From Fibrobacterota bacterium (lineage in GTDB: Bacteria; Fibrobacterota; Chitinivibrionia; Chitinivibrionales; FEN-1185), in assembly GCA_003165595.1 (NCBI GenBank), contig PLWQ01000013.1:1-64000 (forward strand): a stretch of 64,000 nt of DNA, in the 5' to 3' direction. A program made the translations under genes and the position numbers. This document shows, one piece after another, positions 1,809 through 53,756 of the stretch (position 1 is its first letter; every line of letters begins with the position of its first letter). The notes under the pieces were generated by a model. The model saw only the letters and a list, made by a program, of their open reading frames with translations, had not been told where the DNA came from and searched no databases.

Positions 1809-2176
1809 GGGTGTTGACATTGAGGCGCCCAACCATCTGCGCCGCGTCGGGACGGACCGACGCCGGGCTCGACCAACGGGAGGAAATAGTCCCGCGAGAG
1901 CGCGGGGTAGTGCCCAAAGGGAGGGCCGCCGCCGCAAAGCGGCGGGTCGTCCGACTCTTCAATCGGCTTTGTAATCTGATGCCCCGGTAAATCCCCGGTT
2001 CTTTAGTCTTGACACCAAATCGAAGTGCACCTATTTTCTATATCCTCTGTCTTGCGATCCCCGGCTGCGGGGAAGCTTGAGCGCGGATACCGCTTGCGAT
2101 TCCTGGCCGTGGCCTTCGCGCTTTTCCATGATTACGCCAGGGTTTTTGATTCCACTCCGAGTACAACGAGGATGCA
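1809..2176. other. Intergenic region with promoter and leader
   Basis: No convincing gene. The left half is very GC-rich, with short stem-loops (for example CCGCG/CGCGG near 1892 and CCGCCGC/GCGGCGG near 1932) and may be an old repeat. The right half holds the promoter at 2009-2037 and a leader of about 130 nt with a small CCCCG/CGGGG hairpin near 2060. A GAGGA ribosome site lies before the ATG at 2177. Confidence 0.6.
2009..2037 (+). promoter_or_regulatory. Sigma70-type promoter of the terpenoid operon
   Basis: TTGACA at 2009-2014, a 17-bp spacer and TATTTT at 2032-2037. It is the best -35/-10 pair in the left part of the window and is placed to drive the three genes from 2177 to 6548 as a unit separate from the SDR/DUF1295 pair. 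Confidence 0.6.
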
Positions 2177-3478
2177 ATGAAGTTTTCCGTTGCGTGCAAT
2201 TTCGACCATGCGCTGCTTACCGGCCTCGAACCCTATCCGGTTTATGAGGTATACGGCAAGCTCACCAGCGATCATTTTGGCGGCGGCAGGCCGTCGTTCT
2301 ATCTTCCGTCAATAAACGAAACCAAGCTTAAATCCTACGTGGAAGCTTGCCACGGCAGAAAGATTGCGTTCAACTATCTTCTGAATTCCTCCACCATGGG
2401 GAACATGGAATTTACGCGGCAGGGCCAGAGGAAGCTCGACGAGCTGTTCGAATGGCTCGACGGCATAGGCGTTGATTCGGTCACTGTGGCGAGCCCTTTT
2501 TTCCTCAAGCTTGTCAAGACGCGGTATCCCCGCCTCAAGGTGCGCATCAGCTCACACCGCTACACCGACACCCCGCGCAAAATACGGTTCTGGGCCGAGC
2601 AGGGTGCCGACTACATCGTGATTTCGGAAGTGGGCATATACCGGGAATTCAAGGTACTCGAAGCCATGAGAAAAGCCGCGGGCGACCGCGTGGAGTTACA
2701 GCTGATTGTCAACAACTGGTGCCGGCAGGACTGCGCCATTGCCGGCATCCATGCGTCGGCCCTTAACCATGCTTCACAAAAGGGATCGCGCGGGTTTCCG
2801 CTCGACTATTGTTCTATCCTGTGCAATTACGTGCGCCTCATGGACCCGGTAAATTACGTGCGCGCCAACTGGATACGGCCCGAAGACCTTCGCCATTACG
2901 AGGATCTCGGATACGAGAATTTCAAAATTGTCGAGCGTAACACGCCCACGAGGATTCTGGTGGAACGGGTGAAAGCGTATCACAACCGGCGCTACGACGG
3001 GAACCTTCTCGACCTGTTCCAGAACTATGCATATCCCTACGACAAGTTCGGCGAGAAGGAAAAGGAATCGTTTTCCGCCAAGCGGCTGTTCAAATACTTT
3101 GTTAAGCCGCGGGCGGTCAACCTGTTCAAGTTCATGAAGGTCATCAAATTCGGCAAGATGGCCAGCGTCATGTACCCGCTGCGCGGGCCCAATCCGGTAT
3201 TCATCGACAATCGCAAACTTGACGGATTCATCGAATTCTTTCGCGCCGGCAGTTGTGCGGCGCGCGACTGCGACGAGTGCAGGTACTGTCACCAGTGGGC
3301 GCGGAAGTCCGTCGAAATCGATCCCCAGTGGAAAGCCGGCATGGAAGAGATCTACGACGACCTGCTCGGCGACCTGCATTCCGGCGCGTTCTGGGAACCC
3401 TATTACAAGTCGGCAATCGCCTATACTCAGGAATTGTCGAAAGACGTGCTTCAGCGCGGAAAGCGTGCCGCCTCGTGA
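2177..3478 (+). CDS. Peptidase U32-family Fe-S protein (UbiU/UbiV/RlhA-like)
   Basis: A 433-residue protein of the so-called peptidase U32 family. Known members such as UbiU/UbiV and RlhA are not proteases but 4Fe-4S enzymes that hydroxylate substrates without O2. The N-terminal half has the TIM-barrel pattern, including VTVASPFF and the YIVISEVG strand. Cysteines at 182, 186, 212 and 216 lie where the family places its cluster ligands. A second quartet near the C-terminus, C360-X4-C-X2-C-X2-C371, looks like an additional cluster or zinc site and is not part of the short UbiU/UbiV proteins. It is the first gene of a tight operon: its TGA overlaps the GTG of the flavoprotein gene. Context suggests an anaerobic oxidation of an isoprenoid or its precursor; the substrate is unknown. 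Confidence 0.8.
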   Translation: MKFSVACNFDHALLTGLEPYPVYEVYGKLTSDHFGGGRPSFYLPSINETKLKSYVEACHGRKIAFNYLLNSSTMGNMEFTRQGQRKLDELFEWLDGIGVDSVTVASPFFLKLVKTRYPRLKVRISSHRYTDTPRKIRFWAEQGADYIVISEVGIYREFKVLEAMRKAAGDRVELQLIVNNWCRQDCAIAGIHASALNHASQKGSRGFPLDYCSILCNYVRLMDPVNYVRANWIRPEDLRHYEDLGYENFKIVERNTPTRILVERVKAYHNRRYDGNLLDLFQNYAYPYDKFGEKEKESFSAKRLFKYFVKPRAVNLFKFMKVIKFGKMASVMYPLRGPNPVFIDNRKLDGFIEFFRAGSCAARDCDECRYCHQWARKSVEIDPQWKAGMEEIYDDLLGDLHSGAFWEPYYKSAIAYTQELSKDVLQRGKRAAS

Positions 3479-4581
3479 ACTGCGATCTTCCTCTTTGTGT
3501 CGTGGGAGCCGGGCCGTCGGGCGCGACGGCCGCTCGTCTTCTTGCCCAAAGCGGCTGCCGCCGGGTGATTCTTCTCGAAAAATGCGGCTGGCCGCGGCGC
3601 AAAACGTGCGCGGGCGGGTTGGGGCCGCGCGCGCGGGAATGGCTTGACAGACAGGGACTTCTCAAGGAAGCGTCCGTTGCGGCGTCGCGAATCACCAGCC
3701 TCCGATTTACCGCTCCCTCTGGCAAAAGCGCGCGCCTCACCATGAATCGCGAAATGGCAATTGTGATGCCGCGCGACTCGCTCGACGCGTTTCTTGTAAG
3801 TAAAGCAATCGCGGCGGGCGTGGATTTTCGGCCCTCCACCGAGGTCACGTCGGTACGGCAGGAGAGCGGCGGCGTGGTTGTGTGCACGCACGGCGGTGAT
3901 ATCGAAGCAGATGCCGTGGTGCTGGCCGCGGGAGCGCTTAACCGGGCGGCAGACAAGCAACCGCTGCGCACCGGCTGCGCCCATTCGATAATGGCCCGGT
4001 TTGCCGACTTTCCGCACAATCCGGGCGAGATGGAAATGATATACAGCAAGAACCTTTCGCCCTACTACGCCTGGCTTTTTCCGGAACCCGGCGGTCTTGT
4101 GAATGTCGGCCTTGTGGCGCCGTCGCGGCGCAAAGGCGCGTCCCTCCACGACCTCTTTGACGATGCGCTGGAAAACTTCTTTGGTTGGCGGCCAGCCGGT
4201 GCGCGGCAAATCGGGAGGCGTTACGGAGCGCCGATACGCTGCCCGGGACGCATTGGCACAGTCGTTGACGGACGGGTACTGATCGCCGGGGAAAGCGCCG
4301 GGCTGGTGCATTGCCTCACCTGCGAGGGGATCCCGTATGCGCTTGAAAGCGGAGAACTTGCCGCCTCGGCAATCGTTCGCAGTATCACGGGCGGTTCGAG
4401 GCTTGATCCGTTGGCGCTTCGCTGGTACCAACGCGCCGTGGAGCGGCGGTTCTGGCTGCCCGTTACAATGTCGGCGCTGTATCGCTGGTTCGTGGCCAGC
4501 CCGGCATTCCCGCCCGCGGCTCACCTCGGCACTTCTCCCATGTTCGAACGATTCTCGGCCTTTGTACTTGCAAAGGCGTAG
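3475..4581 (+). CDS. Geranylgeranyl reductase-family FAD oxidoreductase
   Basis: A 368-residue flavoprotein. The N-terminus has the FAD dinucleotide motif VGAGPSGATAA. A KTCAGGL segment follows, the cysteine-containing motif typical of geranylgeranyl reductases. A late GESAGLV...CEGI motif closes the FAD site; it is usually GDAAG in the family, so Asp is Glu here. GTG at 3475 is chosen as start because it overlaps the preceding TGA (GTGA) and has GGAAAG upstream; the in-frame extension towards 3253 overlaps the U32 gene and has no protein-like character. Two bases separate it from the cyclase start. Family members saturate isoprenoid double bonds or act as related reductases; squalene epoxidase is less likely given the CAGGL motif. 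It probably prepares or modifies the cyclase substrate or product. Confidence 0.86.
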   Translation: MNCDLPLCVVGAGPSGATAARLLAQSGCRRVILLEKCGWPRRKTCAGGLGPRAREWLDRQGLLKEASVAASRITSLRFTAPSGKSARLTMNREMAIVMPRDSLDAFLVSKAIAAGVDFRPSTEVTSVRQESGGVVVCTHGGDIEADAVVLAAGALNRAADKQPLRTGCAHSIMARFADFPHNPGEMEMIYSKNLSPYYAWLFPEPGGLVNVGLVAPSRRKGASLHDLFDDALENFFGWRPAGARQIGRRYGAPIRCPGRIGTVVDGRVLIAGESAGLVHCLTCEGIPYALESGELAASAIVRSITGGSRLDPLALRWYQRAVERRFWLPVTMSALYRWFVASPAFPPAAHLGTSPMFERFSAFVLAKA

Positions 4582-4583
4582 CC

Positions 4584-6548
4584 ATGGGTATTACCCTTGC
4601 TTCCCTTCGTGAAGCAATCCGGCTGTCGCTGCGCCGCCTGGAAAAGCTTCAGGGAGCGGACGGTGCGTGGGAGGGCGAAGTCGTCTGGTCCCCGGTTATC
4701 ACCGCGCAGTTCGTTATTACCCGCAATTGCATTGGTAAGCCTCTGCTTGCCGAAGAAACCAAAGACTTTCTTACGTATTTCATGCGGCAGCAGTCCGACG
4801 ACGGCGGCTGGGGCCTTCACCCGGAATCGCGATCGTATCTTTTTGCAACCAGCCTTGTGTATGTGGCGCTCCGAATGATGGGCGAAGAGCCTTCCGACCC
4901 GAAGATGGCTGCGGCGCGGGATTGCATCAGCAATCTCGGAACGCCATTATATCTCCCAACCTGGGGCAAGTTGTGGCTTGCCTTTTGCAATCTCTACGAC
5001 TATTCCGGGATGTATTCGGTGCCACCGGAGCTGTGGCTGCTGCCGGCCTGGCTTCCGTTTCATCCCTCGCGGTTCTATTGTCACACGCGACAAATCTATA
5101 GTGGCATGAGCTATCTCTGGGGAAGAAGGTTCCGGCGTCCGGTTGACGACCTGTGCCTTTCCCTGCGCGAAGAGCTGTACGGCGTTCCCTACGAGTCAAT
5201 CGATTTTAAGCGCGGCCGAGGCCTTGTGTCTCGCCGCGACTGTCGCAGCGCGCCGTCACTGTCGCTCACGGCGGCGAATGCGATCTTCTCGACTGCGGAG
5301 AAAAGCATGCCCGTCGCACTGCGGCGGCGCGCGTGCGAGCGGACTCTATCGCTTATCGAATTCGAGCAGCGGTCAACCGAATTCGCCGGACTCTCTCCTG
5401 TCAACGGGGTGCTCAATACGCTATCCCTGTACGCGGCGAATCCGAATCACCCCCAACTTGCCCCGTCGCTTGACGGTCTTAAACACTGGCTGTGGCTCGA
5501 CGATGCCGGCGGCGCACGGCTGTGCGGCGCTCGCAGCCAGGTATGGGACACCGCATTTGTGGTTGAGGCGGTGCATCATGCCGCGCATAAGTCCGCGCTC
5601 GGCCCGAATCTCGCGGCAGCCGCCGCATACCTGCGGGCAAACCAGGTTAAGACCGAACTCGACGACGGCGCAAAGTACTTTCGCTCGCCGCGGCTCGGCG
5701 GCTGGTGTTTCTCCGACGCGCGTCACGGGTGGCCGGTGAGCGATACAACTGCGGAAGCGCTGTGCGCGGATCTTGACCTACGCGAATCAGGCATGGAAAT
5801 GGTTGCGGCGGAATACCTCGATGCCGCGGTGCGATTCCTGCTCGCCCGCCAGAACCGCGACGGCGGCTGGGGCTCATACGAACGCCGGAGAGGAAGCCTG
5901 CTGCTCGAACGCATCAATCCGTCGGAGATGTTCGGGCAGTGCATGGTGGAGCATTCCTACGTGGAGTGCACCGGGTCGGCGCTGTGCGCGCTGGCAAGAT
6001 TCGGGGCTGCATTTCCCGATCATCGCATAACAAAAGGTATTGCAAGTGCCATCCGGCGCGGGCAACGATATATTATCCGCGTCCAGGACCCGTGCGGCGC
6101 ATGGAGCGGGTTCTGGGGTGTCAACTATACGTACGGGACCATGTTCGCGGTGCGCGGACTTGTGGAAAGCGGCGTTTCGCCAAGCCTTCCCGCGATCCGC
6201 AAAGCCTGCGACTGGCTTGTTTCTCATCAGAAAGCCGACGGTGGCTGGGGAGAGCATTGGACCAGCATGGCTGAAAAACGGTACGTGGAGCATCCACGCA
6301 GCCAGGCGGTGCAAACCGCGTGGGCGCTTATGAGTTTGCTACTTGCAAAGGACCCGCGCCGAGAGGTTGCGGACAGGGGAGCGGCGCTGCTCGTGGACCT
6401 GCAGCGCGGCGGCGGATGGCCGCGGGAGGCTGTGACAGGCGTGTTCTTTTCAACCGCAATGCTGCACTACGATTTGTACCGCGAATACTTTCCTCTGTGG
6501 GCGCTGGGGCTTTACAGGGAGGCAAGGCAGAAAAAGGAGAATTGTTAA
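4584..6548 (+). CDS. Triterpene cyclase, oxidosqualene-cyclase-like
   Basis: A 654-residue cyclase of the squalene-hopene/oxidosqualene cyclase superfamily. QW repeats are seen at about 69-76 (QQSDDGGW), 423-429 (RQNRDGGW) and 548 onward (HQKADGGW). The catalytic-acid region reads HGWPVSDTTAE with Asp387, which matches the DCTAE motif of oxidosqualene cyclases (Cys changed to Thr) and not the DxDDTA of squalene-hopene cyclases. HSYVECTGSA and WGVNYTYGTMF (from Trp511) are also oxidosqualene-cyclase-like. Length is nearer to bacterial hopene cyclases than to the roughly 730 residues of sterol cyclases. It is the third gene of the operon, 2 bp after the flavoprotein. No squalene epoxidase is in view, so whether the substrate is epoxidised, hydroxylated or plain squalene is open. 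Confidence 0.85.
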   Translation: MGITLASLREAIRLSLRRLEKLQGADGAWEGEVVWSPVITAQFVITRNCIGKPLLAEETKDFLTYFMRQQSDDGGWGLHPESRSYLFATSLVYVALRMMGEEPSDPKMAAARDCISNLGTPLYLPTWGKLWLAFCNLYDYSGMYSVPPELWLLPAWLPFHPSRFYCHTRQIYSGMSYLWGRRFRRPVDDLCLSLREELYGVPYESIDFKRGRGLVSRRDCRSAPSLSLTAANAIFSTAEKSMPVALRRRACERTLSLIEFEQRSTEFAGLSPVNGVLNTLSLYAANPNHPQLAPSLDGLKHWLWLDDAGGARLCGARSQVWDTAFVVEAVHHAAHKSALGPNLAAAAAYLRANQVKTELDDGAKYFRSPRLGGWCFSDARHGWPVSDTTAEALCADLDLRESGMEMVAAEYLDAAVRFLLARQNRDGGWGSYERRRGSLLLERINPSEMFGQCMVEHSYVECTGSALCALARFGAAFPDHRITKGIASAIRRGQRYIIRVQDPCGAWSGFWGVNYTYGTMFAVRGLVESGVSPSLPAIRKACDWLVSHQKADGGWGEHWTSMAEKRYVEHPRSQAVQTAWALMSLLLAKDPRREVADRGAALLVDLQRGGGWPREAVTGVFFSTAMLHYDLYREYFPLWALGLYREARQKKENC

Positions 6549-40918: not shown

Positions 40919-43612
40919 TTACATCTCCGCAATAATCTCTCTCACGCATGCCGCAATCTGGTCCGCTGTCGAATACGGCGTTATCAACTTCGCCCTGATG
41001 AGGCTCTGAAAGGTGAGCGGCGGCCCGAACGTGATGGTCGGCGAAACTTTCCCGCCGGTAAACAATCTGGGCAAGCCGCCTTGCGGCCAGATTTCCATGG
41101 TTCCGCGCACCCTCACAGGCACGATGGTCGCGTTCACTTCGAGCATGAGAAGGCCGATGCCTGACTTGAATTTCCTGAGCTCGCCGGTCCTGGTGGGGCC
41201 GGATTCGGGAAACACGAGCAGATTATTGCCGTCCTTGAGCACGGCAATTGACGTGCGGAGAATGGCCGCGACATCATCATCCCGCTTGACGGGAAGGATG
41301 TGAGCGGAGAGCGAGACGAGCAAGGGCGCAGGCAGCAGCTCGCGGCCGCCGATTACGAACGTTTTTTTCCTGATCGGTTGTGCAAGTGAATACAGTATCC
41401 ACAAAGGGTCTAATACGCTCTGGCGGTTCGCGCACAGGATGATCGACTTGTGCGCCGGGACCCCTTCGGCGCCCGATGCGGAAATGTTCCACAAGACGCT
41501 GCTCGCTCCGCTGGCCACCAGCGGTATGGCGGACGTGATGGCGGCCGCCGCTGCGGCCGGATACGGCGCGGGAAGCTTGGAACCTACGATCCGCTGCTTG
41601 ATGTCCGTGACGGTCTCGGCGCAGCCCGTGGCGCTTGCTCCGGAAACATGGTCCATTGCGGCGGTATACACATCTCCCAGGGTTTCCAATTTCACAAAAT
41701 CTTCTTCCGGGAACGTAAAACAGAATTTGCGTTCGACCATGCACATGAGGTCGAGCTTCTTCATGGAGTCCAGGCCCAGGTCGAGTTCGAGGTTCAGGGA
41801 TGGCGGCAGCTTCGCCTGGTCGCTTTTATTGGAGACCTTTGCGGCAAACGCCGCGATGGTCCGGTATTCCTCGGTGAGCATGAGCCCCGCGTCCATTGCC
41901 GAGACCGCCTGCTTTCCCCGTGGGGCCTGGAATGATTCCTTGAGCGAATAGTACAACTCCCGCAGCTCGTGTTTCTTGAGTTTCTTCGACGTGGTCCGGG
42001 GAAGCGGGTCGTAGACAACCGCGAAATCGGTGATCTTCTTGTAGGAGGGAAGGTCCCGGCCCAGGCGCAGCACCTCGTTGCGCACGATATCGGCGGCCTC
42101 TCCGGCCGGCAAGTTCCGGCGTATGTCCTTGGACGGCACGATGAGGGCGGCCGCGATTTCCTTGCCCTTGAGCGCGGCGGAGAACACGCCGATTTCTTCG
42201 ATGCACTCCGACGCCGAATAGAAATCCTCCAGTTCGTCCGGATATACGTTTTTCCCGCTGTCGAGCACGATTACGTCCTTGATGCGGCCTGAAATAAAGA
42301 TGAACCCGTCTTTGTCAAGCCTACCCAGATCGCCGGTGTGAAACCAGCCGTCGGCGTCGAACGCTTTCGCGGTGAGCGACTCGTTGTTAAGGTATCCGGA
42401 AAACACATTGGTGCCGCGAAAGCACACCTCGCCGATGCCGGAAGCGTCCGGGTTGTCGATTTTTACTTCGTTCTCGGCGAGCGGCACGCCAACGCTGCTC
42501 AATTTCGGTCTTTCCAGAGGGCACAGGGTAATTGCGCCGAACGTCTCCGAAAGGCCATATCCTTCCACGATGTTAAATCCCATGAGCTTGAAGCCGTTAA
42601 AGATGTTCTTCTGGATGGATGCTCCGCCGGAAATAATGATGCTGAGTCGTCCGCCGAAATTCTTGTGGACAGAGGAGAACAGCTTTGCCCGGAACCTCTG
42701 ACCCAGAAGACCGCCGAGAGTGAGGGAAACGAACTTCATTGCCGCAAATATGGTCTGTACCGCAAATCCTTTGGATTTTACATTCTGGTTGATGCTGTTG
42801 TAAAAAAGTTGCAGCATTTTCGGGACGGCGGGGAGCATGGAAACTTTCTTTTCGCGAAGCCCTTCCATGAGGAGCGAACCCTTTACCGTGGGAATGAGCA
42901 CGATGTCGAGTCCGCCTCCGAGTGCACCCGGAAGGCAGGCGCAGGCGCCGAAGACGTGATGCAGCGGCAGTACGGCCATCATGGTGTCTCCCGGCCCCAC
43001 GTGCATGCGGGGAATTGCGGAAAGCGAAATCGCGGTAAAATTCTTCTGGCACAGCACAACGCCTTTTGCCTTGCCGGTTGTGCCTGATGTAAAGATGACC
43101 ACCGTCGGATCGTCCGGGGAAAACGTTCCGGAAAGAACGTCGTCGGACGGGTCGCCCTGGGCACAAAACGATGCAAAGGTCCTTTCTGCGTCCGCGAACG
43201 CCTCGTCGTCGACAATCACCTGCGAGATGCTGGAAATTTCCGCGCGCATCTCATCAAAAAGGACGGCAAAGCCCTTGGAACAGAAGACGAACTTGGGACG
43301 AGTCTGGAACACGATTTCCCGGATTTCCGGCGCAGGAAGGTTGGGGTCCACGGGAACGGTTTTCCCGCCGGCAAGGAAACCGGCATGCCAGGCGAGCACC
43401 CATTCGGGCGTATTGTCTCCGATTATGACAATAACGTCGGTTGGGGCATACCCGCTTTTGCGAAGCGCCGACGCCAATCTGTTAAGGTCGCGGTGAAAGT
43501 CGTGATAGGTCCAGGTCCGGTACTGTTTGTTGCGCTTGATGTGCATGCATGGACCTGCTGAGTTGCGCGCTATCGAATCGCGGAGGATGTCAGCATACAC
43601 GTGAGGGTTCAT
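40919..43612 (-). CDS. Fusion of acyl-AMP ligase, acyl carrier protein and PlsC-like acyltransferase
   Basis: An 897-residue cytosolic or membrane-associated protein. Residues 1-560 are an adenylate-forming fatty-acid ligase (TSGTTGKAKG from 175, EGYGLSETFGA, GWFHTGDLG). Residues 570-640 are a carrier protein with the phosphopantetheine Ser616 in LGLDSMKKLD. The last 210 residues are a PlsC/LPLAT acyltransferase with FPESGPTRTGELRKFKSGIG. In the HX4D motif the His is Arg730 (ANRQSVLDPLW), which would disable the standard mechanism. E. coli Aas joins PlsC and ligase in the opposite order and sits beside the LplT lysophospholipid transporter; here an MFS gene is 1 bp upstream, so lysophospholipid repair is a plausible role, with the reservation of the missing His. 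Confidence 0.88.
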   Translation of the reverse strand: MNPHVYADILRDSIARNSAGPCMHIKRNKQYRTWTYHDFHRDLNRLASALRKSGYAPTDVIVIIGDNTPEWVLAWHAGFLAGGKTVPVDPNLPAPEIREIVFQTRPKFVFCSKGFAVLFDEMRAEISSISQVIVDDEAFADAERTFASFCAQGDPSDDVLSGTFSPDDPTVVIFTSGTTGKAKGVVLCQKNFTAISLSAIPRMHVGPGDTMMAVLPLHHVFGACACLPGALGGGLDIVLIPTVKGSLLMEGLREKKVSMLPAVPKMLQLFYNSINQNVKSKGFAVQTIFAAMKFVSLTLGGLLGQRFRAKLFSSVHKNFGGRLSIIISGGASIQKNIFNGFKLMGFNIVEGYGLSETFGAITLCPLERPKLSSVGVPLAENEVKIDNPDASGIGEVCFRGTNVFSGYLNNESLTAKAFDADGWFHTGDLGRLDKDGFIFISGRIKDVIVLDSGKNVYPDELEDFYSASECIEEIGVFSAALKGKEIAAALIVPSKDIRRNLPAGEAADIVRNEVLRLGRDLPSYKKITDFAVVYDPLPRTTSKKLKKHELRELYYSLKESFQAPRGKQAVSAMDAGLMLTEEYRTIAAFAAKVSNKSDQAKLPPSLNLELDLGLDSMKKLDLMCMVERKFCFTFPEEDFVKLETLGDVYTAAMDHVSGASATGCAETVTDIKQRIVGSKLPAPYPAAAAAAITSAIPLVASGASSVLWNISASGAEGVPAHKSIILCANRQSVLDPLWILYSLAQPIRKKTFVIGGRELLPAPLLVSLSAHILPVKRDDDVAAILRTSIAVLKDGNNLLVFPESGPTRTGELRKFKSGIGLLMLEVNATIVPVRVRGTMEIWPQGGLPRLFTGGKVSPTITFGPPLTFQSLIRAKLITPYSTADQIAACVREIIAEM

Positions 43613-45822: not shown

Positions 45823-45963
45823 AAAACAGAATAGGGGTGATGGGATGAACTTAAAATAATGTTTTGGCGACTATTCGATTACATAAATGAAGCCCGGGAA
45901 CAAGACGATTGTTCTACTACTTATAATCAGCACGGTCCGATAGAAGGGCCTGGAAGGTGTAGC

Positions 45964-47583
45964 ATGAAAAGAACCGGGAATGTTCTTGCGGTAATAGTAT
46001 CCGGCCTGGCAATTCTGACGATTGTAAATCCAGCCCCTTCCCAGACGGTCTATCCGCCGACAATAAAGATTCCCGTCACCTATTACGATTTTCATTCCGA
46101 CAGGAGCAATCCCGAATTCGAGCAGCCGTGCATGGCGGGCATTTATGCGGGAACGGTGGCAGATACACTGGACGCAAATCGTAGTCCTTTTCTTGGGCCT
46201 TCACCCTACCTTGATTACGGAATCACGAAATGGTTCAGGCCGTGGGCGCCGGGTGATTTCAGGGCGCCATCGTATCAAAAAGTATCGGGAGGGGAGTTTG
46301 ACGCGGTGATTGCGTATGCGGGAATGGCGACGGTAAATTTCGACACTTCTTTTAAGAATGTGGTGATACAGGATTCTCTGACATTTCGATATGTACCAGG
46401 GTCATTGGGAATATATGAGTATTCCGATTCCTCCTTTCTCCCTCTTGACGGAAAGGGATTCGGCAACGAGGGGCTTGGTCACAACTATTCATTCACCATG
46501 CACTTTGGGTATTCGGGCCTTGCCCTCGGGCGCAACCAGACCCTCAAGTTTGAGGCCGGTGATGACATGTGGGTTTTTGTTGACGGCAAGCTGGTGAAGG
46601 ATCTCGGCGGTATCCACACGCCCAAAAGCGCCTTGCTCAACCTCGACAGCGTGCCCGGGGACAAAACGGCATACCATGATCTCGACGTCTTTTACGCGCA
46701 ACGGCACTCGCCTTCGTCAATAATTAGGATGCAGGTCTGTCTGGTTGCGGACCTTATCGGGCCGACGAGGTTGTTCATGAACCTTGTGCCGCGTTCGGAT
46801 ACAATAATCGCCGGAGACAGCGTGGTCTTCGTCGCGGCAATCATCGACAATCTTGCCAAGGTTCATCCCGAGTTCGACACGTGCATCCATTGGAGTATCG
46901 TTCCGTCCAATTCAAACAGCTGGCTGAGTTCCACGGTTGGCAGCCGTGTCACCTTTCATGCGGTCGGGGCCTACCAGAACAATATTGTCATCGCATGTTT
47001 TTCGGATCCGGTCTTGCCCACCATGGAGTTTATCAGCGCGGACACCCTCTATGTAAAGCCTGGAACGGACTTGCAGTGGTCTGTCGAACCGTATCCGCCT
47101 TCACTTCCCGCCGTGTTGAGCGGCCATGCGTCGCTCGATTCGCTGACATTTTTGGTAAACGACAGTCAGAAAATCGTCGCCGCACTGTTCCGGGATCGCT
47201 ATGGAAATTTCGCCTGCTTCGACACAAATGCAACTTGGCAGGTCCAGGAAAATCCCGGCGTCATCAGGGTTTCTGCGCCCGACGAGCCGTACATTGCCGT
47301 GATAGACAGGATTTCTGCGGGAACCGCCTCCATTAAAGTTGTGAGCCGTTTGTTGACAAAAACGATAGCGGTCGTTGTGTCCGGCGGCACAAAGGCGAAG
47401 ACCTTGGAGACGCTTTCGGCTTTGCAAATACCCAGGGTGACAAAGGAATATTTCAACCTGCGCGGCCGGAAACTGCCGTCGAACTTCTACGGCCTCACGC
47501 ATGCCAACGGCTTGGTGTTCGAACGCGTGATCGAACCGTCGGGAAATGTGCACATTACGAAAAGGCTGGGAACGTTCGAGTGA
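45964..47583 (+). CDS. Fibro-slime domain protein 1 (short form)
   Basis: A 539-residue secreted protein from ATG 45964 with GGAAGG upstream. Signal peptide ends PAPSQ. The fibro-slime domain spans about 30-270: VPVTY-type opening (IPVTYYDFHSDRSNPEF), the NYSF motif and GDDMWVFVDGKLVKDLGGIH around residue 200, ending DVFYAQRHSP. It is followed by an Ig-like unit (SDTIIAGDSVVFVAAI) and one module-A unit (VAALFRDRYGNFACFD). The C-terminus differs from the other three: FNLRGRKLPSNFYGL...KRLGTFE, a short DxxGR sorting-like tail. It is the first and smallest of four family members in this region. In Fibrobacter such proteins are linked to the cell surface and to cellulose adhesion. Confidence 0.87.
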   Translation: MKRTGNVLAVIVSGLAILTIVNPAPSQTVYPPTIKIPVTYYDFHSDRSNPEFEQPCMAGIYAGTVADTLDANRSPFLGPSPYLDYGITKWFRPWAPGDFRAPSYQKVSGGEFDAVIAYAGMATVNFDTSFKNVVIQDSLTFRYVPGSLGIYEYSDSSFLPLDGKGFGNEGLGHNYSFTMHFGYSGLALGRNQTLKFEAGDDMWVFVDGKLVKDLGGIHTPKSALLNLDSVPGDKTAYHDLDVFYAQRHSPSSIIRMQVCLVADLIGPTRLFMNLVPRSDTIIAGDSVVFVAAIIDNLAKVHPEFDTCIHWSIVPSNSNSWLSSTVGSRVTFHAVGAYQNNIVIACFSDPVLPTMEFISADTLYVKPGTDLQWSVEPYPPSLPAVLSGHASLDSLTFLVNDSQKIVAALFRDRYGNFACFDTNATWQVQENPGVIRVSAPDEPYIAVIDRISAGTASIKVVSRLLTKTIAVVVSGGTKAKTLETLSALQIPRVTKEYFNLRGRKLPSNFYGLTHANGLVFERVIEPSGNVHITKRLGTFE

Positions 47584-47730
47584 CGCTCATCGGGCCATCT
47601 CCGCTATGTTAATCGATGGCTCTTGCCTGATTGGAAATCATCGAGCCGACCACATGACGGGTTTGGTTGTGGGCTGCGGGCGAAGCGGCTCAGTCGGCGT
47701 TTTCAATCCACAATCTGAAATCTACAATTC

Positions 47731-48909
47731 TTACAAGCTCTCCATCAAAATCTTCTTCAAATCGTCTTTGTCAAGCATCACCGGGTTGTTCTTGTTGCCC
47801 GTCTTCTCCACGATGGCCGACACCGACGACGGCGTTACGCCGTATGCGCCGAGTTTAGGGAGCCCCAGGACGCGCGCGTATTCCGCAAGCTTTTGCACGA
47901 GCATGTCGCAGGTTTCCTCGGCGGTGTCGCCGCGACTGCCGCACAGCACTTCTCCGGCCTGCGCGAATTTGATAAGGTGGGGAAGCGAGTCTTCCCTGCC
48001 GGCCAGTCTTTCTACGGTAACGCGTACCGCGGGCGCCAGGAGCGCGCCGCAGACAACGCCGTGCGGCACGGAGAACATGCCGCCGATTGACGAGGCGAAC
48101 CCGTGCACGACGCAGAGCCCCGCGTTGGCAAGCGTGATGCCCGACATGAGTGCGCCGTAGGCGAGGTTCGTTCGCACGCTAGCGTCCTGCGCGGCGTTGG
48201 TGCATGCGGGAATGAGGCTGTCTTTGACCCGTTCCATTCCGCTCACCGCAAGCATGTCGGTGAGCACGGTCGCCTTTGTTGACACATAGGATTCCAGGAG
48301 CTGTGCGAGCGCGTCGAGGCCGCAGGCTGCGGTGATTGCCGGCGGGCAGGAAAGCGTGAGCAGCGGGTCGACAATGGCGACATCGGGCATGAAGTTGTCG
48401 TGGCGAAGCGATTTCTTGAACCCGGCGGGTCCCACGCTGCTGAGCACCGCATTCCTGGTGGCTTCGCACCCGGTGCCGGCCGTGGTCGGTATCGCAACAA
48501 ATGGAATCTTTGTGCCCGGGTGGACCTTGAAGCCCACGTCTTCCAGATAGTCTGTTACTCCCTCGTTGAGCGGCAACATGGCCGAAATCGCCTTGCCCGC
48601 ATCGATAACGCTTCCGCCTCCGACCGACAGCACCGCGGAAATCCCGCGGCCCGCGTTTGCGGTAACCGCTTTGTCGACGTCGGCAGGAGTGGGCTCGCCC
48701 GCTATTTCCCATTCGTAAAACTCGATCCCGTCGCTTTTGAGGCTGTCCGCTATTAGGGCGTGAGCGCCGCCATTGGAGAGCGAGTGCCTGCCGCGAATCC
48801 AGAGAACGGTTTTTCCGAACGCCGAGACTGCGCTCCCGACCGTTTCGGCCCGGTGCGCACCGAACTGTATTGCTGGGAGGCGGGAGAATAAAAACGGTCT
48901 TATCGCCAT
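47731..48909 (-). CDS. Iron-containing (group III) alcohol dehydrogenase
   Basis: A 392-residue Fe-ADH. NAD-binding GGGSVIDAGKAI and the signature AIPTTAGTGCEAT are present. Metal ligands seen are Asp199 (GLDALAQ), the first His in VVHGFASSIGG and the His in SVPHGVV. The second usual ligand of the DALTH motif is Gln203, a variation found in some branches. It overlaps the end of the ABM gene by 10 bp, so the two are co-translated. It probably reduces or oxidises a short-chain alcohol, aldehyde or lactaldehyde. The pair is inserted, in opposite orientation, within the fibro-slime array. Confidence 0.92.
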   Translation of the reverse strand: MAIRPFLFSRLPAIQFGAHRAETVGSAVSAFGKTVLWIRGRHSLSNGGAHALIADSLKSDGIEFYEWEIAGEPTPADVDKAVTANAGRGISAVLSVGGGSVIDAGKAISAMLPLNEGVTDYLEDVGFKVHPGTKIPFVAIPTTAGTGCEATRNAVLSSVGPAGFKKSLRHDNFMPDVAIVDPLLTLSCPPAITAACGLDALAQLLESYVSTKATVLTDMLAVSGMERVKDSLIPACTNAAQDASVRTNLAYGALMSGITLANAGLCVVHGFASSIGGMFSVPHGVVCGALLAPAVRVTVERLAGREDSLPHLIKFAQAGEVLCGSRGDTAEETCDMLVQKLAEYARVLGLPKLGAYGVTPSSVSAIVEKTGNKNNPVMLDKDDLKKILMESL

Positions 48910-49211
48910 TTGTTTTTATCCAGCGGTTTCACCACCGTGTAGGGAATGCCTTCGCGAGGCTTTTGCATCCAGTCTTCAACGGTTTTTTTCCATTCGAGAT
49001 AATGAGGCGTCTTCTTGTGGGCCGCAGCCGCTTCTTCGGTCTCGTATGCCTCGTAAAGCATGAACCGGCTCGGATCATCCGCGTCTTGCAGAACGTCGAA
49101 GCGCAGATTACCGCGCTCGCGTACCGACGCCTCGTGGTTCTTGACCGTGGCCTCAATGAACTTGGTGATCGAATCCGGCTTCACCTGTATCATGACGGCT
49201 GTGACGATCAT
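48900..49211 (-). CDS. ABM-family monooxygenase-like protein
   Basis: A 103-residue ferredoxin-like-fold protein from ATG 49211, behind GGAGG. The pattern VTAVMIQVKPDSITKFIEAT, NLRFDVLQDADDPSRFMLYE and AAAAHKKTPHY is the antibiotic-biosynthesis-monooxygenase (ABM)/LsrG/YgiN family. Members oxidise quinones or isomerise small sugars phosphates; many do not need cofactors. Co-transcribed with the Fe-ADH, so a small-carbonyl pathway is likely. Confidence 0.85.
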   Translation of the reverse strand: MIVTAVMIQVKPDSITKFIEATVKNHEASVRERGNLRFDVLQDADDPSRFMLYEAYETEEAAAAHKKTPHYLEWKKTVEDWMQKPREGIPYTVVKPLDKNKWR

Positions 49212-49663
49212 ACGTGGCCTCCTTGTTTGATAATCGCGCTGTGCGGAGATGGAGTGCGCGTGTTGCGCGCACAATTATCCATTGGGTGCAAAATTCCCGG
49301 GCCGCGCGGTCAAGAGCCCTGCCTTGTTCAACGCATGCAGACCCGGGTTCAAATAATAGGGGCAATCACAAGACCCGTGGCGATTTTTCCCTCACTGACA
49401 ACCAAAATATAAATACCTGAAAAACTTGGAGTACGAGATTTTTTTTTATATATTTGTTATAAGGGATTGGGAAGCGCTTGTATTGCCCAAGCTGTCGACG
49501 CATTAAGCGATTAACTTCTTGAAAATCCCTCAAGATCTATTGAACCCGGCGTATGGAACGGGCGACTATTTAGTGTGAGTACCGGGTTCTGCCAAATTTG
49601 TCAAGAGGGCCACGTACAATTCTTTAATGGACAACTGCTTGCAAGCGGGAGGTTAGTTGACTT
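49212..49663. other. Intergenic region upstream of fibro-slime 2
   Basis: AT-rich stretch 49430-49460 with TATATATTTGTTATAA may hold the promoter for the plus-strand gene, though a matching -35 is not clear. The leader after it is about 200 nt and ends in GGGAGG some 12 bp before the ATG. No gene or RNA recognised. Confidence 0.5.
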
Positions 49664-52600
49664 ATGCAAAAGCCCAAGATTCTCCTTCGCGAATTGGTCG
49701 TAGCGGCTGCCGGAGCGGTTCTCATGGCGTCGGTTCCCTCCAGCGGACAGGCCGTGTACCCGGCAAATCTAACGGTTCCGGTAACCTATTTCGACTATCA
49801 TTCCGACGGTTCCAACCCGGATTTCAACTCGGGCACGAACCCCGCTCAGGTGCTGCCGGGAATGGTGCAGCCCACGCTTGACAAAGACGGGTTGCCGGTC
49901 GGCACGACCACCTATCTTTACAGCTGGGGAATCGGGAAATGGTTCCGCACCTGGTCGCAGCAGAAACTGGAGAACTACGGGATCGATACGCAACGGCCCA
50001 CGTACGCCAACGGCGGACACACCGTTGCCGCCGTCAACACCGTTGCCTTCGACACTTCCTACAAGAACATGGTATTTCAGGACAATCTGGTCTTTACCTA
50101 CGTGGCGGGTTCGGCAGGGGTGTATCAGTATCAGAATGCCAACTTTTTTCCGCTTGACAACCGAGGTTTCGGCGCGGACGTGCCGACAATCAACTTCGAC
50201 GGGGCGCCGCTTAACAGAGCGACAAATACACACAACTATTCCTTCGCGATGCACCTCAAAAAAGGTTTCAAATACCGGCCCGGGCTCACGTTTAATTTTG
50301 AGGGTGACGACGACCTGTGGGTATTCATCAATGGCACGCTCGCTCTTGACCTCGGCGGCATTCATGGCACCACCCAAGGACAATTCAACCTTGGCGGGGC
50401 TGCCGACGCTACGGGATTGGCCGCCAAGTTGGGGCTGGTCGCGGGCGATTCGGCCACGCTTGACGTGTTCTACTGTGAACGGCAGTCGGTGGGTTCGGAC
50501 ATCCGCATCACCACCAACATTATTACGGCAAATCCGGTTAAGCTCCTCCTCAACATGAATCCCAAGGTCGACACAATCGCGGCAGGCAGCACCATTTCCT
50601 ACAGTGCAACCGTTGTTGATGACACCAACGGTGTGCGTCACGAATTCGATTCGCAGATCAAGTGGACGCTCACTCCGGCAAACACCAGCTATCTTACTTC
50701 GGCCACGGGGGGTGCGGACACGTTCCACGCCGTGAAGGCATACATGTACGATACCATTAGGGCACAATTTACCGATCCCGTTACGGACACGGTTCTCTGG
50801 GCCGCAGACACCGTGTATGTCAAGGCGGGCCCGGACTACAAGGTCTGGATCGAACCGGATGCGAATATCAATGTCAACGACAGGAGCGCCGCAAGCCTGG
50901 CGCGGCTGCAGAATCCGGATCACGTTCCACTGGTTACCATTTCAGACACGCAGAATACTGCCTTGGTCTACGGGGTTGTCCGCGATCTTTACGGCAATTT
51001 TACGCATCTTGCCACCAGCGCTCAATGGAACGAATATCCGGTTGGCACGGGCATCGCCAACGTCACTGCTTCCACGCCGCAAGACGTGGGTCTTATTCAG
51101 CGTATAACCGGGGTGTTTGGCAACACTCATGCACAGGCTCAGCAGGCCGGAGTGCAGTTCTGGGACACTACTACGGTAAGCATCCTCAACGGATTCATCA
51201 AACAGATCAGATTTGTTGATGTTGCCACCGGTCAGCCCATCACCGGCATCAACATCAATACCGACCAGGACAAATCCATCAAGCTGCAGGGTATATTGTC
51301 CACCGATTCCACAAATACCTGGGTCGACGTGACCGGCACCTGGGCACTCGCGCCGGACATAGCCTCTGCCACTCCGATTCCTGCGGGTATTGCCGGATCG
51401 TGGGACTTTAGCCCCACGGCGCCGGGCGGACCGTCCACTCTCACCGGCACCACGGGCGCCGGGACCGGTCATGTGGCCACTGTCAAGATTCCAGTGACTG
51501 TGACCGTAGCGCCGCCGTCGACCGCGACATTCAACATAATCACGCCGCCTCCGGGACGCATTGCAGGGGACACTATTCTGGCGGTTGTGACCATTTCCAA
51601 CCATGACGGCCTGGTGCCAGGTACATATTGCTATATGGGAGACACCGCCGGGCTGTATCACGACACGCTGGGCAAGGGCGCCTCGGGCTTGCAGCCTGAT
51701 CCCATTATAAAAACGGGAGACGGCACTACCACGCTCAACGCAGGCAACGGCGGCGCCGTTACTACGCCTGAGTGTTTTCAGAACGGCGTTGACACCGTGA
51801 AAGTCGTTCTGTACAACGCACCGTATACGGATCCGCTCACCGGCATCGACACGCTGCACCAGTTGTCCGTCAATCTCAGGGGCGTGACAGCGGTGACCAC
51901 TCCGTTCAAGCTCTTGCCCGGAGATCTTTACTCGTTGCAGCTGGAAAATGCCGCCGGCGTGCATCTCACCGGTATCGACACGCTTACCTATCCCGACGGC
52001 CATGCCAGCATTTACTCTGTGGGGTACGACAGGTTCGGGAACAAGCGGGGAAGGGAGCTTGCAAATTGGAGCGTAACCCCGACGCTGCACGCGCTCACGC
52101 AGACCAGCATGATTTCGCAGATCTACTATGATGCCAGCAACGCTACGTACGACGAATCCGGGCTTGTTTTTGCCCGGGCCGCGCGTTTCTTCAACGGCAC
52201 ATTCGCCGATTCGCTGGCCGTGGACAGTCTCGGAATCTATATCGTCGGGCCTCCGTCGTCGCTTGATTCGGCCGTAACCCGCGACGTCAACGGGGATGGA
52301 TATCTTGACGAAATAGAACTCTACTTCAACAAGCAGGTCACCATTCTTCCCGGTACGGCATTTACCATCACGGCGAACGGCGTGACATTCCCCGTGGACA
52401 GCGTGAGCGGCGTGGGAACTACGGGAAGCACGGGCACGCATTTTATTGCGTACCTGGCCGAGCAGAAAACCGTCCCGCCACAGACCGCGTGGCGGCCGCT
52501 CGTGAGCATTGCCGGAATGCAGGGAACGCCTGATATCAGCAAGTACATGTCCAAAGACGGCGCCGGTCCCGTGATATGGAGCGTCACCAAGACCATCAAC

Positions 52601-53386
52601 AATCCCGAGAACCGGACGCAGGACGTGGTGGTGGTTACCTTCTCCGAGCCGATCACGGGCCCGGGCGGGACGCCCTTCTCGTGGTCCAAAGTAAAGCCTT
52701 CCGACGTGTTTACTGTTTACAAACTCAAGCCCGACGGCACCTACGACACCATCGCCATGGCGCTGGACAGCATCATGTCGTTTGCCGAGCTCGTCAACGA
52801 CAGCACACTCAAGTTCACCATGGCAAACGGCGTGGACATAACGGCAAACGATTACATGAATATCAAGGCGATCACGGGGCAAGTATACGATTCAAAGGGG
52901 AATGCTCCCGTGTCGGATAACCGGAAGGCACCTGTCAAGGTTGTGGGCGCCCCGCCGTCGCGGATCGTTGCGGTGCCAAATCCGTCTGGGCCCACATTTG
53001 TTCACGAGCAGCCCGGAGTGCTAAGTTTTGCGAACAACCCGCATGCGCGGGACTGGGTGCGCACCGAGCATGCCGGCACCGTGATCACGTTCCAGGTAAC
53101 CCCGCCGACAAGCGCGGACGAGACGTTGGAAGGAAACATCATCATCTACGACGCGGTGGGCAATCTGGTGGCTTCCGCCGACAACAAGGATGCGCTGCAA
53201 TCGCTCATTTACGACAAGAACAATCTGAGCAGCGCTTACTCGTACGACATTTACTGGAACGGGTCCAACGAAGCCGGCCTCAAGGTTGCACCCGGGGTGT
53301 ACCGGACCATTGTGTATCTCTCCTACACCTCGCCTGCCAAGAGTGAAAAGAAGAAACTGTGGGGGACGGTGGGAATTTCGTACTAG
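49664..53386 (+). CDS. Fibro-slime domain protein 2 (module order A-B-D)
   Basis: A 1240-residue exported protein. Signal peptide to about 29 (SSGQA), then the fibro-slime domain: VPVTYFDYHSDGSNPDFNSG, the HNYSFAMH motif and GDDDLWVFINGTLALDLGG around 214-233, closing DVFYCERQSVGSDI. Ig-like modules follow: A at about 431 (GVVRDLYGNFT), B at about 536 (IKLQGILSTDSTNTWVDVTG) and D at about 624 (AGDTILAVVTISNHDGLVPG). The last 275 residues, from DGAGPVIW, are almost the same as in the next gene and end in a FlgD-Ig-like tail (IYDAVGNLV, YDIYWNGSN, KVAPGVYR) followed by KKKLWGTVGISY. GGGAGG sits 12 bp before ATG. It is probably secreted to the surface by T9SS or a similar route. Confidence 0.9.
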   Translation: MQKPKILLRELVVAAAGAVLMASVPSSGQAVYPANLTVPVTYFDYHSDGSNPDFNSGTNPAQVLPGMVQPTLDKDGLPVGTTTYLYSWGIGKWFRTWSQQKLENYGIDTQRPTYANGGHTVAAVNTVAFDTSYKNMVFQDNLVFTYVAGSAGVYQYQNANFFPLDNRGFGADVPTINFDGAPLNRATNTHNYSFAMHLKKGFKYRPGLTFNFEGDDDLWVFINGTLALDLGGIHGTTQGQFNLGGAADATGLAAKLGLVAGDSATLDVFYCERQSVGSDIRITTNIITANPVKLLLNMNPKVDTIAAGSTISYSATVVDDTNGVRHEFDSQIKWTLTPANTSYLTSATGGADTFHAVKAYMYDTIRAQFTDPVTDTVLWAADTVYVKAGPDYKVWIEPDANINVNDRSAASLARLQNPDHVPLVTISDTQNTALVYGVVRDLYGNFTHLATSAQWNEYPVGTGIANVTASTPQDVGLIQRITGVFGNTHAQAQQAGVQFWDTTTVSILNGFIKQIRFVDVATGQPITGININTDQDKSIKLQGILSTDSTNTWVDVTGTWALAPDIASATPIPAGIAGSWDFSPTAPGGPSTLTGTTGAGTGHVATVKIPVTVTVAPPSTATFNIITPPPGRIAGDTILAVVTISNHDGLVPGTYCYMGDTAGLYHDTLGKGASGLQPDPIIKTGDGTTTLNAGNGGAVTTPECFQNGVDTVKVVLYNAPYTDPLTGIDTLHQLSVNLRGVTAVTTPFKLLPGDLYSLQLENAAGVHLTGIDTLTYPDGHASIYSVGYDRFGNKRGRELANWSVTPTLHALTQTSMISQIYYDASNATYDESGLVFARAARFFNGTFADSLAVDSLGIYIVGPPSSLDSAVTRDVNGDGYLDEIELYFNKQVTILPGTAFTITANGVTFPVDSVSGVGTTGSTGTHFIAYLAEQKTVPPQTAWRPLVSIAGMQGTPDISKYMSKDGAGPVIWSVTKTINNPENRTQDVVVVTFSEPITGPGGTPFSWSKVKPSDVFTVYKLKPDGTYDTIAMALDSIMSFAELVNDSTLKFTMANGVDITANDYMNIKAITGQVYDSKGNAPVSDNRKAPVKVVGAPPSRIVAVPNPSGPTFVHEQPGVLSFANNPHARDWVRTEHAGTVITFQVTPPTSADETLEGNIIIYDAVGNLVASADNKDALQSLIYDKNNLSSAYSYDIYWNGSNEAGLKVAPGVYRTIVYLSYTSPAKSEKKKLWGTVGISY

Positions 53387-53412
53387 GCGACAAACAGACT
53401 AGTCCCAAGAGG

Positions 53413-53451
53413 AAATCCCGGGAAGAACCTTCCCGGGATTTTTCTTTTCTT
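53413..53451 (+). terminator. Intrinsic terminator of fibro-slime 2
   Basis: Arms AAATCCCGGGAAG and CTTCCCGGGATTT with a short loop, followed by TTCTTTTCTT. The same stem recurs after the next gene (58522-58554). Confidence 0.9.
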
Positions 53452-53625
53452 CAGTGCCCAACCGATGTATTTTGTCATGTGATTCTGTAAAGGTGCGGCG
53501 GAGAGAGTTTCCGAATTCGGCGTCTGCAAAGGGGGCAAGCAAGACGTCGGCGAGCGGCAGGTACAGATACAGCCGGTCAGAGAGCCGGGCGCAACAGAAT
53601 GCGGTTACCCCAAGAATTTTTCCAC

Positions 53626-53642
53626 AAAATGTTGAACATTTT
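53626..53642. repeat. Perfect 17-bp inverted repeat AAAATGTT-G-AACATTTT
   Basis: Two 8-bp arms around a single G, 115 bp upstream of the fibro-slime 3 start. It has the size of an operator; no copy was seen before the other fibro-slime genes. Confidence 0.35.
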
Positions 53643-53756
53643 AGCGATTTCGCGCGACCATGATGGTAAGTATTATCACGCAATTTCCCCGAAAATGGTT
53701 TTTGGAGTGTAAATTCATTCAAATTTTGCGGTTCAGAACCGGAGGTTTGCCTGCCT

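What the first reader, a model, noticed from the sequence alone, without database searches (positions are those of the whole stretch)
2009..6548. Operon combining a U32 Fe-S protein, a GGR-type flavoprotein and an oxidosqualene-cyclase-like enzyme
Seen: three genes with overlaps or a 2-bp gap behind one promoter. Known: U32 proteins UbiU/UbiV carry out O2-independent hydroxylation; GGR flavoproteins reduce isoprenoids; the cyclase superfamily makes hopanoids and sterols. Inference: an anaerobe could oxidise an isoprenoid without O2 and cyclise it with a sterol-type cyclase, bypassing squalene epoxidase. If true this would be a new route to polycyclic triterpenoids and may be the best candidate here for an undescribed system.
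Basis: partly seen in the sequence, partly recalled or inferred. Interest (0 to 1): 0.82.

Follow-up and report, generated by a model that had tools for sequence, protein, structure and literature searches.

The report
Possible oxygen-free sterol-type lipid operon
A three-gene bacterial operon, with relatives in two other bacterial phyla, seems to replace the oxygen-requiring first step of sterol making with an iron-sulphur enzyme of a family that takes its oxygen from the metabolite prephenate; if true, sterol-like lipids could be made without oxygen gas.

Summary
The operon is real: U32 Fe-S protein (2177-3478), GGR flavoprotein (3475-4581) and a sterol-type oxidosqualene cyclase, OSC (4584-6548). 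It is not confined to this genome. In 296 Spirochaetota genomes, exactly four carry the U32 orthologue (67-70% identity) and exactly those four carry an OSC, adjacent in three and at matching contig ends in the fourth. In 379 Myxococcota-phylum genomes, 14 carry it (50-71%), several in sterol/isoprenoid clusters. One operon reads prenyl synthase > chorismate mutase/DAHP synthase > U32 > GGR > OSC, the window's own order. Chorismate mutase makes prephenate, the oxygen donor of known U32 hydroxylases, and lies beside U32 in 11 of 14 loci. The U32 clade is paired with at least two unrelated OSC lineages. Squalene monooxygenase is absent from six of seven U32+OSC genomes tested but present in 13 of 13 other OSC genomes. 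The GGR resembles Bsr, the bacterial sterol C-24 reductase. Best reading: prephenate-dependent, O2-independent epoxidation feeding a sterol-type cyclase. Nothing was tested biochemically.

The parts
2009..2037 (+). promoter-like site (TTGACA, 17 nt, TATTTT) upstream of the U32 gene
   Evidence: 10/12 consensus match, 4 found vs 1.9 expected; weak
2177..3478 (+). U32-family Fe-S protein, proposed prephenate-dependent O2-independent epoxidase/hydroxylase
   Evidence: AlphaFold2 model pLDDT 86.8, top PDB fold match U32 protein 5d88 E 1.5e-11; orthologues beside OSCs
2720..2824 (+). first Cys set C182-X3-C186-X25-C212-X3-C216, predicted 4Fe-4S site
   Evidence: alignment A2: C182, C186, C216 invariant, C212 nearly so
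3254..3289 (+). second Cys set C360-X4-C365-X2-C368-X2-C371, predicted second 4Fe-4S site
   Evidence: invariant in the 24 aligned family members
3475..4581 (+). GGR-family flavoprotein, Bsr-like (bacterial sterol C-24 reductase) candidate; GTG start overlapping the U32 stop
   Evidence: TIGR02032 176 bits over cut-off; groups with GGRs next to myxobacterial OSCs
3607..3609 (+). Cys45 codon (KTCAGG), equivalent of the active-site Cys of GGRs
   Evidence: sequence; motif from PMC12004948
4066..4083 (+). GGR catalytic motif YxWxFP (YAWLFP)
   Evidence: motif from PMC12004948
4584..6548 (+). sterol-type oxidosqualene-cyclase-like enzyme
   Evidence: OSC tree with SHC outgroup
5742..5756 (+). catalytic motif D387-T388-T-A-E (canonical DCTAE; human D455 kept, C456 replaced by Thr)
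   Evidence: D455, H232, Y503, W387, F444, C533, W581 and F696 equivalents kept; Thr seen in no other OSC compared

Best explanation
The operon encodes an oxygen-independent entry into sterol-type triterpenoid (or closely related polyprenoid) synthesis. U32 uses Fe-S clusters and prephenate as oxygen donor to put an oxygen on the terminal double bond of a squalene-like polyprene, giving a 2,3-epoxide (or equivalent) and replacing the O2-dependent FAD squalene monooxygenase. The OSC-type cyclase protonates that epoxide with the Asp of its D(C/T)TAE motif and cyclises it to a 3-hydroxy polycycle. The GGR flavoprotein, like Bsr, then reduces the side-chain (C-24) double bond. Shown: the operon, the family assignments, retained catalytic motifs, recurrent U32-OSC linkage in three phyla, adjacency of U32 to chorismate mutase/DAHP synthase and to squalene-synthase-type genes in Myxococcota, and absence of squalene monooxygenase from most U32+OSC genomes tested. 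Inferred: the epoxidation itself, prephenate as donor in this subfamily, the order of steps and the product. Open: where the polyprene comes from in the host and Spirochaetota, which lack known squalene synthases.
For: Spirochaetota: U32 orthologue and OSC in the same 4 of 296 genomes (about 3e-9 if independent draws, less striking once kinship is allowed for), adjacent in three and at facing contig ends in G315. Myxococcota phylum: 14 of 379 genomes. G470/L167: prenyl synthase, CM/DAHPS, U32, GGR, OSC with gaps of about 45, 48, 5 and 7 bp, divergent from SQS and HpnE-like genes; G615, G463, G698, G531 and G663 have subsets of the same set. CM/DAHPS (NF009239, 507 bits, cut-off 279) beside U32 in 11 of 14 loci; U32 hydroxylations need prephenate (PMC6599085; PMC11574389) and UbiUV does not take its oxygen from O2 even in air (PMC10470549). 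One U32 clade pairs with separate OSC lineages: AU test rejects window OSC plus Spirochaetota OSCs as one clade, p 2.7e-5. SE (PF08491): none in G000, G151, G315, G255, G250, G152; present in 13/13 other OSC genomes. OSC active site kept. GGR has YxWxFP and Cys and groups with OSC-linked GGRs.
Against: No U32 protein is known to epoxidise an isolated alkene; characterised members hydroxylate aromatic rings or nucleobases. Host and four Spirochaetota genomes have no PF00494 squalene/phytoene synthase, so squalene as their substrate is unproven. The host has COX1, so O2 may be available to it. U32+OSC genome G461 also has an SE-family hit (68 bits), and genome-wide SE was not tested in most U32+ Myxococcota. 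The U32 cysteine spacing differs from the usual CX6CX15CX3C. The window OSC has Thr for the conserved Cys next to the catalytic Asp. Several CM-U32 loci show no OSC within about 9 kb (L174, L176-L178).
Confidence: 0.6

Rival explanations
1. U32 performs a different O2-independent oxidation in the same pathway: it hydroxylates the cyclised product (for example at C-3, C-4 or C-14), while the cyclase takes squalene directly or the epoxide comes from an unrecognised enzyme.
For: Known U32 chemistry is hydroxylation. The window cyclase has Thr instead of the Cys next to the catalytic Asp. G461 carries both U32 and an SE-family hit.
Against: Spirochaetota and Myxococcota partner OSCs keep the full DCTAE motif and the other OSC active-site residues compared, mostly. 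No SE in six of seven tested U32+OSC genomes. No DXDD motif of squalene-hopene cyclases.
Confidence: 0.17
2. In the host and Spirochaetota the substrate is not squalene but another polyprene (prenyl diphosphate, polyprenol or prenylated quinone), and the OSC-type enzyme makes a new cyclic isoprenoid or meroterpenoid.
For: 0 of 5 of these genomes has a PF00494 gene against 15 of 15 other OSC genomes. In Spirochaetota U32-OSC lies within an MEP/prenyl-synthase cluster. U32 relatives UbiU/V act on prenylated phenols.
Against: Partner OSCs keep sterol-cyclase active-site residues and the Myxococcota clusters carry squalene-synthase-type and HpnE-like genes. A non-homologous squalene synthase or uptake of squalene is not excluded.
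Confidence: 0.15
3. U32 and OSC act in separate pathways and are merely co-transferred with isoprenoid genes; U32 modifies RNA or a quinone.
For: Some U32 orthologues lie only beside CM/DAHPS with no OSC nearby (L174, L176-L178). Paralogous U32s sit in ketosynthase and type III PKS clusters.
Against: Exact co-occurrence in Spirochaetota, tight operons in two further phyla, and pairing with unrelated OSC lineages.
Confidence: 0.06
4. Decayed or inactive operon in this host: a transferred sterol cluster that has lost squalene synthase and makes nothing.
For: Absent from 150 relatives; no squalene synthase; C456T; the window starts at a contig end.
Against: All three frames are intact with overlaps and 2-bp spacing and conserved catalytic motifs; the same lack of squalene synthase in four spirochaetes argues for a real pathway state.
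Confidence: 0.07

Closest known systems
UbiU-UbiV (O2-independent ubiquinone hydroxylases), TrhP and RlhA (U32 oxidases)
   Same: U32 domain and predicted TIM-barrel fold, conserved cysteines for 4Fe-4S, link to prephenate, replacement of an O2-dependent enzyme by an O2-independent one.
   Different: Single protein with two predicted cluster motifs rather than a heterodimer; different Cys spacing; linked to sterol-type cyclases; proposed substrate is an aliphatic alkene; about 42% or less identity to any U32 outside its own clade seen here and no NCBIfam equivalog match above cut-off.
Bacterial sterol clusters (squalene monooxygenase + OSC + Bsr), e.g. Sandaracinus amylolyticus
   Same: OSC-type cyclase and Bsr-like GGR side by side, with squalene-synthase and prenyl-synthase genes in the Myxococcota relatives.
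   Different: Squalene monooxygenase is replaced by U32 (with CM/DAHP synthase in Myxococcota); no SE in the host or Spirochaetota.
Bsr, bacterial sterol C-24 reductase (PMC12004948)
   Same: GGR family, YxWxFP motif, active-site Cys, neighbour of OSC.
   Different: Window GGR is only about 30-39% identical to the OSC-linked myxobacterial GGRs compared; activity untested.
Squalene-hopene cyclase / squalene-tetrahymanol cyclase (O2-independent triterpenoid routes)
   Same: Polycyclic triterpenoids without O2; same superfamily.
   Different: Those protonate squalene with a DXDD motif; this cyclase has the OSC-type D(C/T)TAE motif and branches with OSCs.

Membership tests
Oxidosqualene cyclase (sterol-type) | Branches with OSCs apart from squalene-hopene cyclases | tested here: met
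   SH-aLRT 100 for the OSC side
Oxidosqualene cyclase (sterol-type) | Catalytic Asp (human D455), His232, Tyr503, Trp387, Phe444, Phe696, Cys533 | tested here: met
Oxidosqualene cyclase (sterol-type) | Full DCTAE motif (Cys456) | tested here: not met
   Window has DTTAE; the Spirochaetota and Myxococcota partner OSCs have DCTAE
Oxidosqualene cyclase (sterol-type) | TIGR03463 curated cut-off (851 bits) | tested here: not met
   746.6 bits; the broader TIGR01787 cut-off is passed
Oxidosqualene cyclase (sterol-type) | Converts 2,3-oxidosqualene | not testable with these tools
   no biochemistry
U32 oxidase family | PF01136 domain and U32 fold | tested here: met
   (5d88 top hit)
U32 oxidase family | Conserved four-cysteine CX6CX15CX3/4C motif | tested here: inconclusive
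   Conserved but differently spaced CX3C-X25-CX3C plus a second CX4CX2CX2C set
U32 oxidase family | Prephenate dependence and O2-independence | not testable with these tools
   Only indirect: CM/DAHPS beside U32 in 11 of 14 Myxococcota loci
Bsr (bacterial sterol C-24 reductase) | GGR family with YxWxFP motif and active-site Cys | tested here: met
Bsr (bacterial sterol C-24 reductase) | Groups with OSC-linked myxobacterial GGRs | tested here: inconclusive
   100/100 against eight host-order GGRs, but few outgroups and no authentic Bsr sequence used
Bsr (bacterial sterol C-24 reductase) | Reduces C-24 double bond of sterols | not testable with these tools
   no biochemistry
Canonical O2-dependent bacterial sterol pathway | Squalene monooxygenase (PF08491) in the genome | tested here: not met
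   absent in G000, G151, G315, G255, G250 and G152; positive controls 13/13
Canonical O2-dependent bacterial sterol pathway | Squalene synthase (PF00494) in the genome | tested here: not met
   absent in G000 and the four Spirochaetota; present in 15/15 other OSC genomes, including U32+ G152 and G461

The most novel reading that the evidence does not exclude
U32 is the first O2-independent squalene epoxidase: it transfers oxygen from prephenate to an aliphatic alkene, so that true 3-hydroxy sterols can be made without molecular oxygen, with a chorismate mutase/DAHP synthase supplying the donor in Myxococcota. In the host and Spirochaetota squalene would come from a still unknown synthase.
Probability: 0.45. 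Interest if true: 0.95.

Novelty: new variant of a known kind. Interest (0 to 1): 0.84.

Why it matters
Sterol synthesis is regarded as strictly aerobic because squalene epoxidation uses O2, and steranes in old rocks are read as signs of oxygen. A 2016 survey found no OSC in any anaerobe and stated that an alternate anaerobic sterol pathway might yet be discovered (PMC4919349). A conserved U32-OSC-GGR system, with a prephenate-making gene in the Myxococcota clusters, makes that question directly testable. It would also extend U32 oxygen transfer from rings and bases to isolated alkenes. No paper describing such a system was found in the held library; subscription journals and preprints were not searchable.

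Tried and rejected
Viral-contig scan with U32: nothing. OSC search in 150 host relatives: only the host and one spurious fragment. The GGR as 'isoprenoid reductase before cyclisation' was set aside because its nearest relatives here are GGRs next to myxobacterial OSCs and one such GGR (Bsr) was shown to reduce sterol C-24. 'Squalene-hopene cyclase' was rejected (no DXDD; tree). 'Vertical inheritance of one U32-OSC pair' was rejected (AU p 2.7e-5). The hypothesis that the operon marks an anaerobe was dropped after the COX1 hit. The upstream SDR/DUF1295 pair was not seen near the OSCs or U32 genes of the loci searched with it (done before the Myxococcota U32 loci were fetched; the search of those loci also gave no hit to it), so it is not counted as part. 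The U32 crystal relative 5d88 gives the fold but no cluster or substrate information.
Full report
WHAT IS IN THE SEQUENCE. Three genes on the + strand follow one another with a 4-bp overlap and a 2-bp gap: U32 2177-3478, GGR 3475-4581 and a cyclase 4584-6548. The cyclase is closer to lanosterol synthase (E 2e-130) than to squalene-hopene cyclase (2e-51), branches with OSCs, and keeps the equivalents of human D455, H232, Y503, W387, F444, C533, W581 and F696. It has Thr where every other OSC compared has C456 (DTTAE instead of DCTAE). The window is the start of contig C6 of a 5.39-Mb, 98%-complete genome.

THE ASSOCIATION IS NOT A SINGLE CASE. No other member of 150 related genomes has the cyclase; U32 relatives there are only about 40% identical and GGR relatives at most 35%. 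Scanning 296 Spirochaetota genomes with U32 and, separately, with the OSC gave the same four genomes. The genes are adjacent in three; in the fourth they lie at facing contig ends. There the pair sits with dxs, a prenyl synthase, fni and, in at least three, DUF116, i.e. an MEP isoprenoid cluster.

MYXOCOCCOTA GIVE THE CONTEXT. A scan of 379 genomes of the phylum of G152 (Myxococcota by its record title) found 14 with the U32 orthologue at 50-71% identity. In G470 (L167) one tight operon reads prenyl synthase, chorismate mutase/DAHP synthase, U32, GGR, OSC, next to squalene-synthase-family and HpnE-like amine-oxidoreductase genes. G615, G463, G698, G531 and G663 have overlapping subsets. Chorismate mutase/DAHP synthase (NF009239 well above cut-off) lies beside U32 in 11 of 14 loci. 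Its chorismate-mutase product is prephenate. Genetic work shows that U32 proteins RlhA and TrhP need prephenate (PMC6599085), a 2024 review reports prephenate as the oxygen source in anaerobic ubiquinone synthesis (PMC11574389; the primary paper was not held), and UbiUV does not take its oxygen from O2 even under air (PMC10470549).

INDEPENDENT PAIRING. All OSC-linked U32s fall in one strongly supported clade apart from the host-order paralogues. Their OSC partners do not: the Spirochaetota, G470 and G615 OSCs form one clade, G463 lies elsewhere, and the window OSC lies with a different, mostly myxobacterial clade. Holding window and Spirochaetota OSCs together is rejected (AU p 2.7e-5). The same U32 paired with different OSC lineages argues for functional coupling.

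WHAT IS MISSING. Squalene monooxygenase (PF08491) was not found in the host, the four Spirochaetota or G152, but was found in 13 of 13 other OSC genomes; G461 (U32+) has a modest hit. These 13 were not tested for U32 genome-wide, only within about 10 kb of the OSC. Squalene/phytoene synthase (PF00494) was found in 15 of 15 other OSC genomes (including U32+ G152 and G461) but in none of the host and four Spirochaetota. So in Myxococcota squalene is the natural substrate, while in the host and Spirochaetota the polyprene source is unexplained. The host has COX1, so it is probably not a strict anaerobe.

PARTS. U32: AlphaFold2 model with mean pLDDT 86.8, best PDB match the U32 protein 5d88; two conserved cysteine sets, C182/C186/C212/C216 and C360/C365/C368/C371, suggest two 4Fe-4S clusters in one protein, where UbiU-UbiV carry one each (PMC6747719). 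GGR: has the YxWxFP motif and Cys reported for Bsr (PMC12004948) and groups with OSC-linked myxobacterial GGRs, with thin outgroup sampling.

MECHANISM. Most likely U32 replaces squalene monooxygenase as UbiUV replaces the flavin hydroxylases of ubiquinone synthesis: prephenate-derived oxygen is put on the terminal alkene, the OSC cyclises the epoxide, and the GGR saturates the side chain. The genomic pattern is shown; the reaction is inferred. Rivals are a later hydroxylation by U32 and a non-squalene substrate in some lineages.

VERDICT. Observation confirmed; interpretation partly supported and widened, with corrections on the host's O2 relation, on the role of the GGR and on the missing squalene synthase. 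New variant of a known kind (a sterol-type route with a U32 enzyme in place of the monooxygenase), of high interest because it makes O2-independent sterol synthesis testable.

Noticed in passing
L023:7558-8898 (own contig C27) and L004-L021: A paralogous U32 subfamily (about 36-41% identical) is present in many genera of the host's order and mostly lies beside a ketosynthase and acyl carrier protein or a type III polyketide synthase with methyltransferases; possibly another O2-independent hydroxylation in a lipid/polyketide pathway.
   Followed up: partly
L037-L041, L043-L046: OSC open frames of about 1,130-1,180 aa, and squalene-monooxygenase hits in open frames of similar length in several of the same genomes, suggest monooxygenase-OSC gene fusions in Myxococcota and one Bacteroidota bin.
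   Followed up: no
58-1808: SDR (best NCBIfam resemblance 7beta-hydroxysteroid dehydrogenase, far below cut-off) overlapping a DUF1295 protein that also matches the Steroid_dh Pfam model, 368 bp upstream of the operon; could be sterol-modifying, but not seen with it elsewhere.
   Followed up: partly
L144:7493-8035 and L141:13406-13948: DUF116 protein of unknown function within the spirochaete MEP/U32-OSC cluster.
   Followed up: no
45859-58496: Three related large secreted-type repeat proteins (574, 1240 and 1579 aa) close together, resembling fibro-slime-type proteins by eye.
   Followed up: no
40919-43612: 897-aa fusion that reads by eye as AMP-binding ligase, carrier-like and acyltransferase parts.
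   Followed up: no
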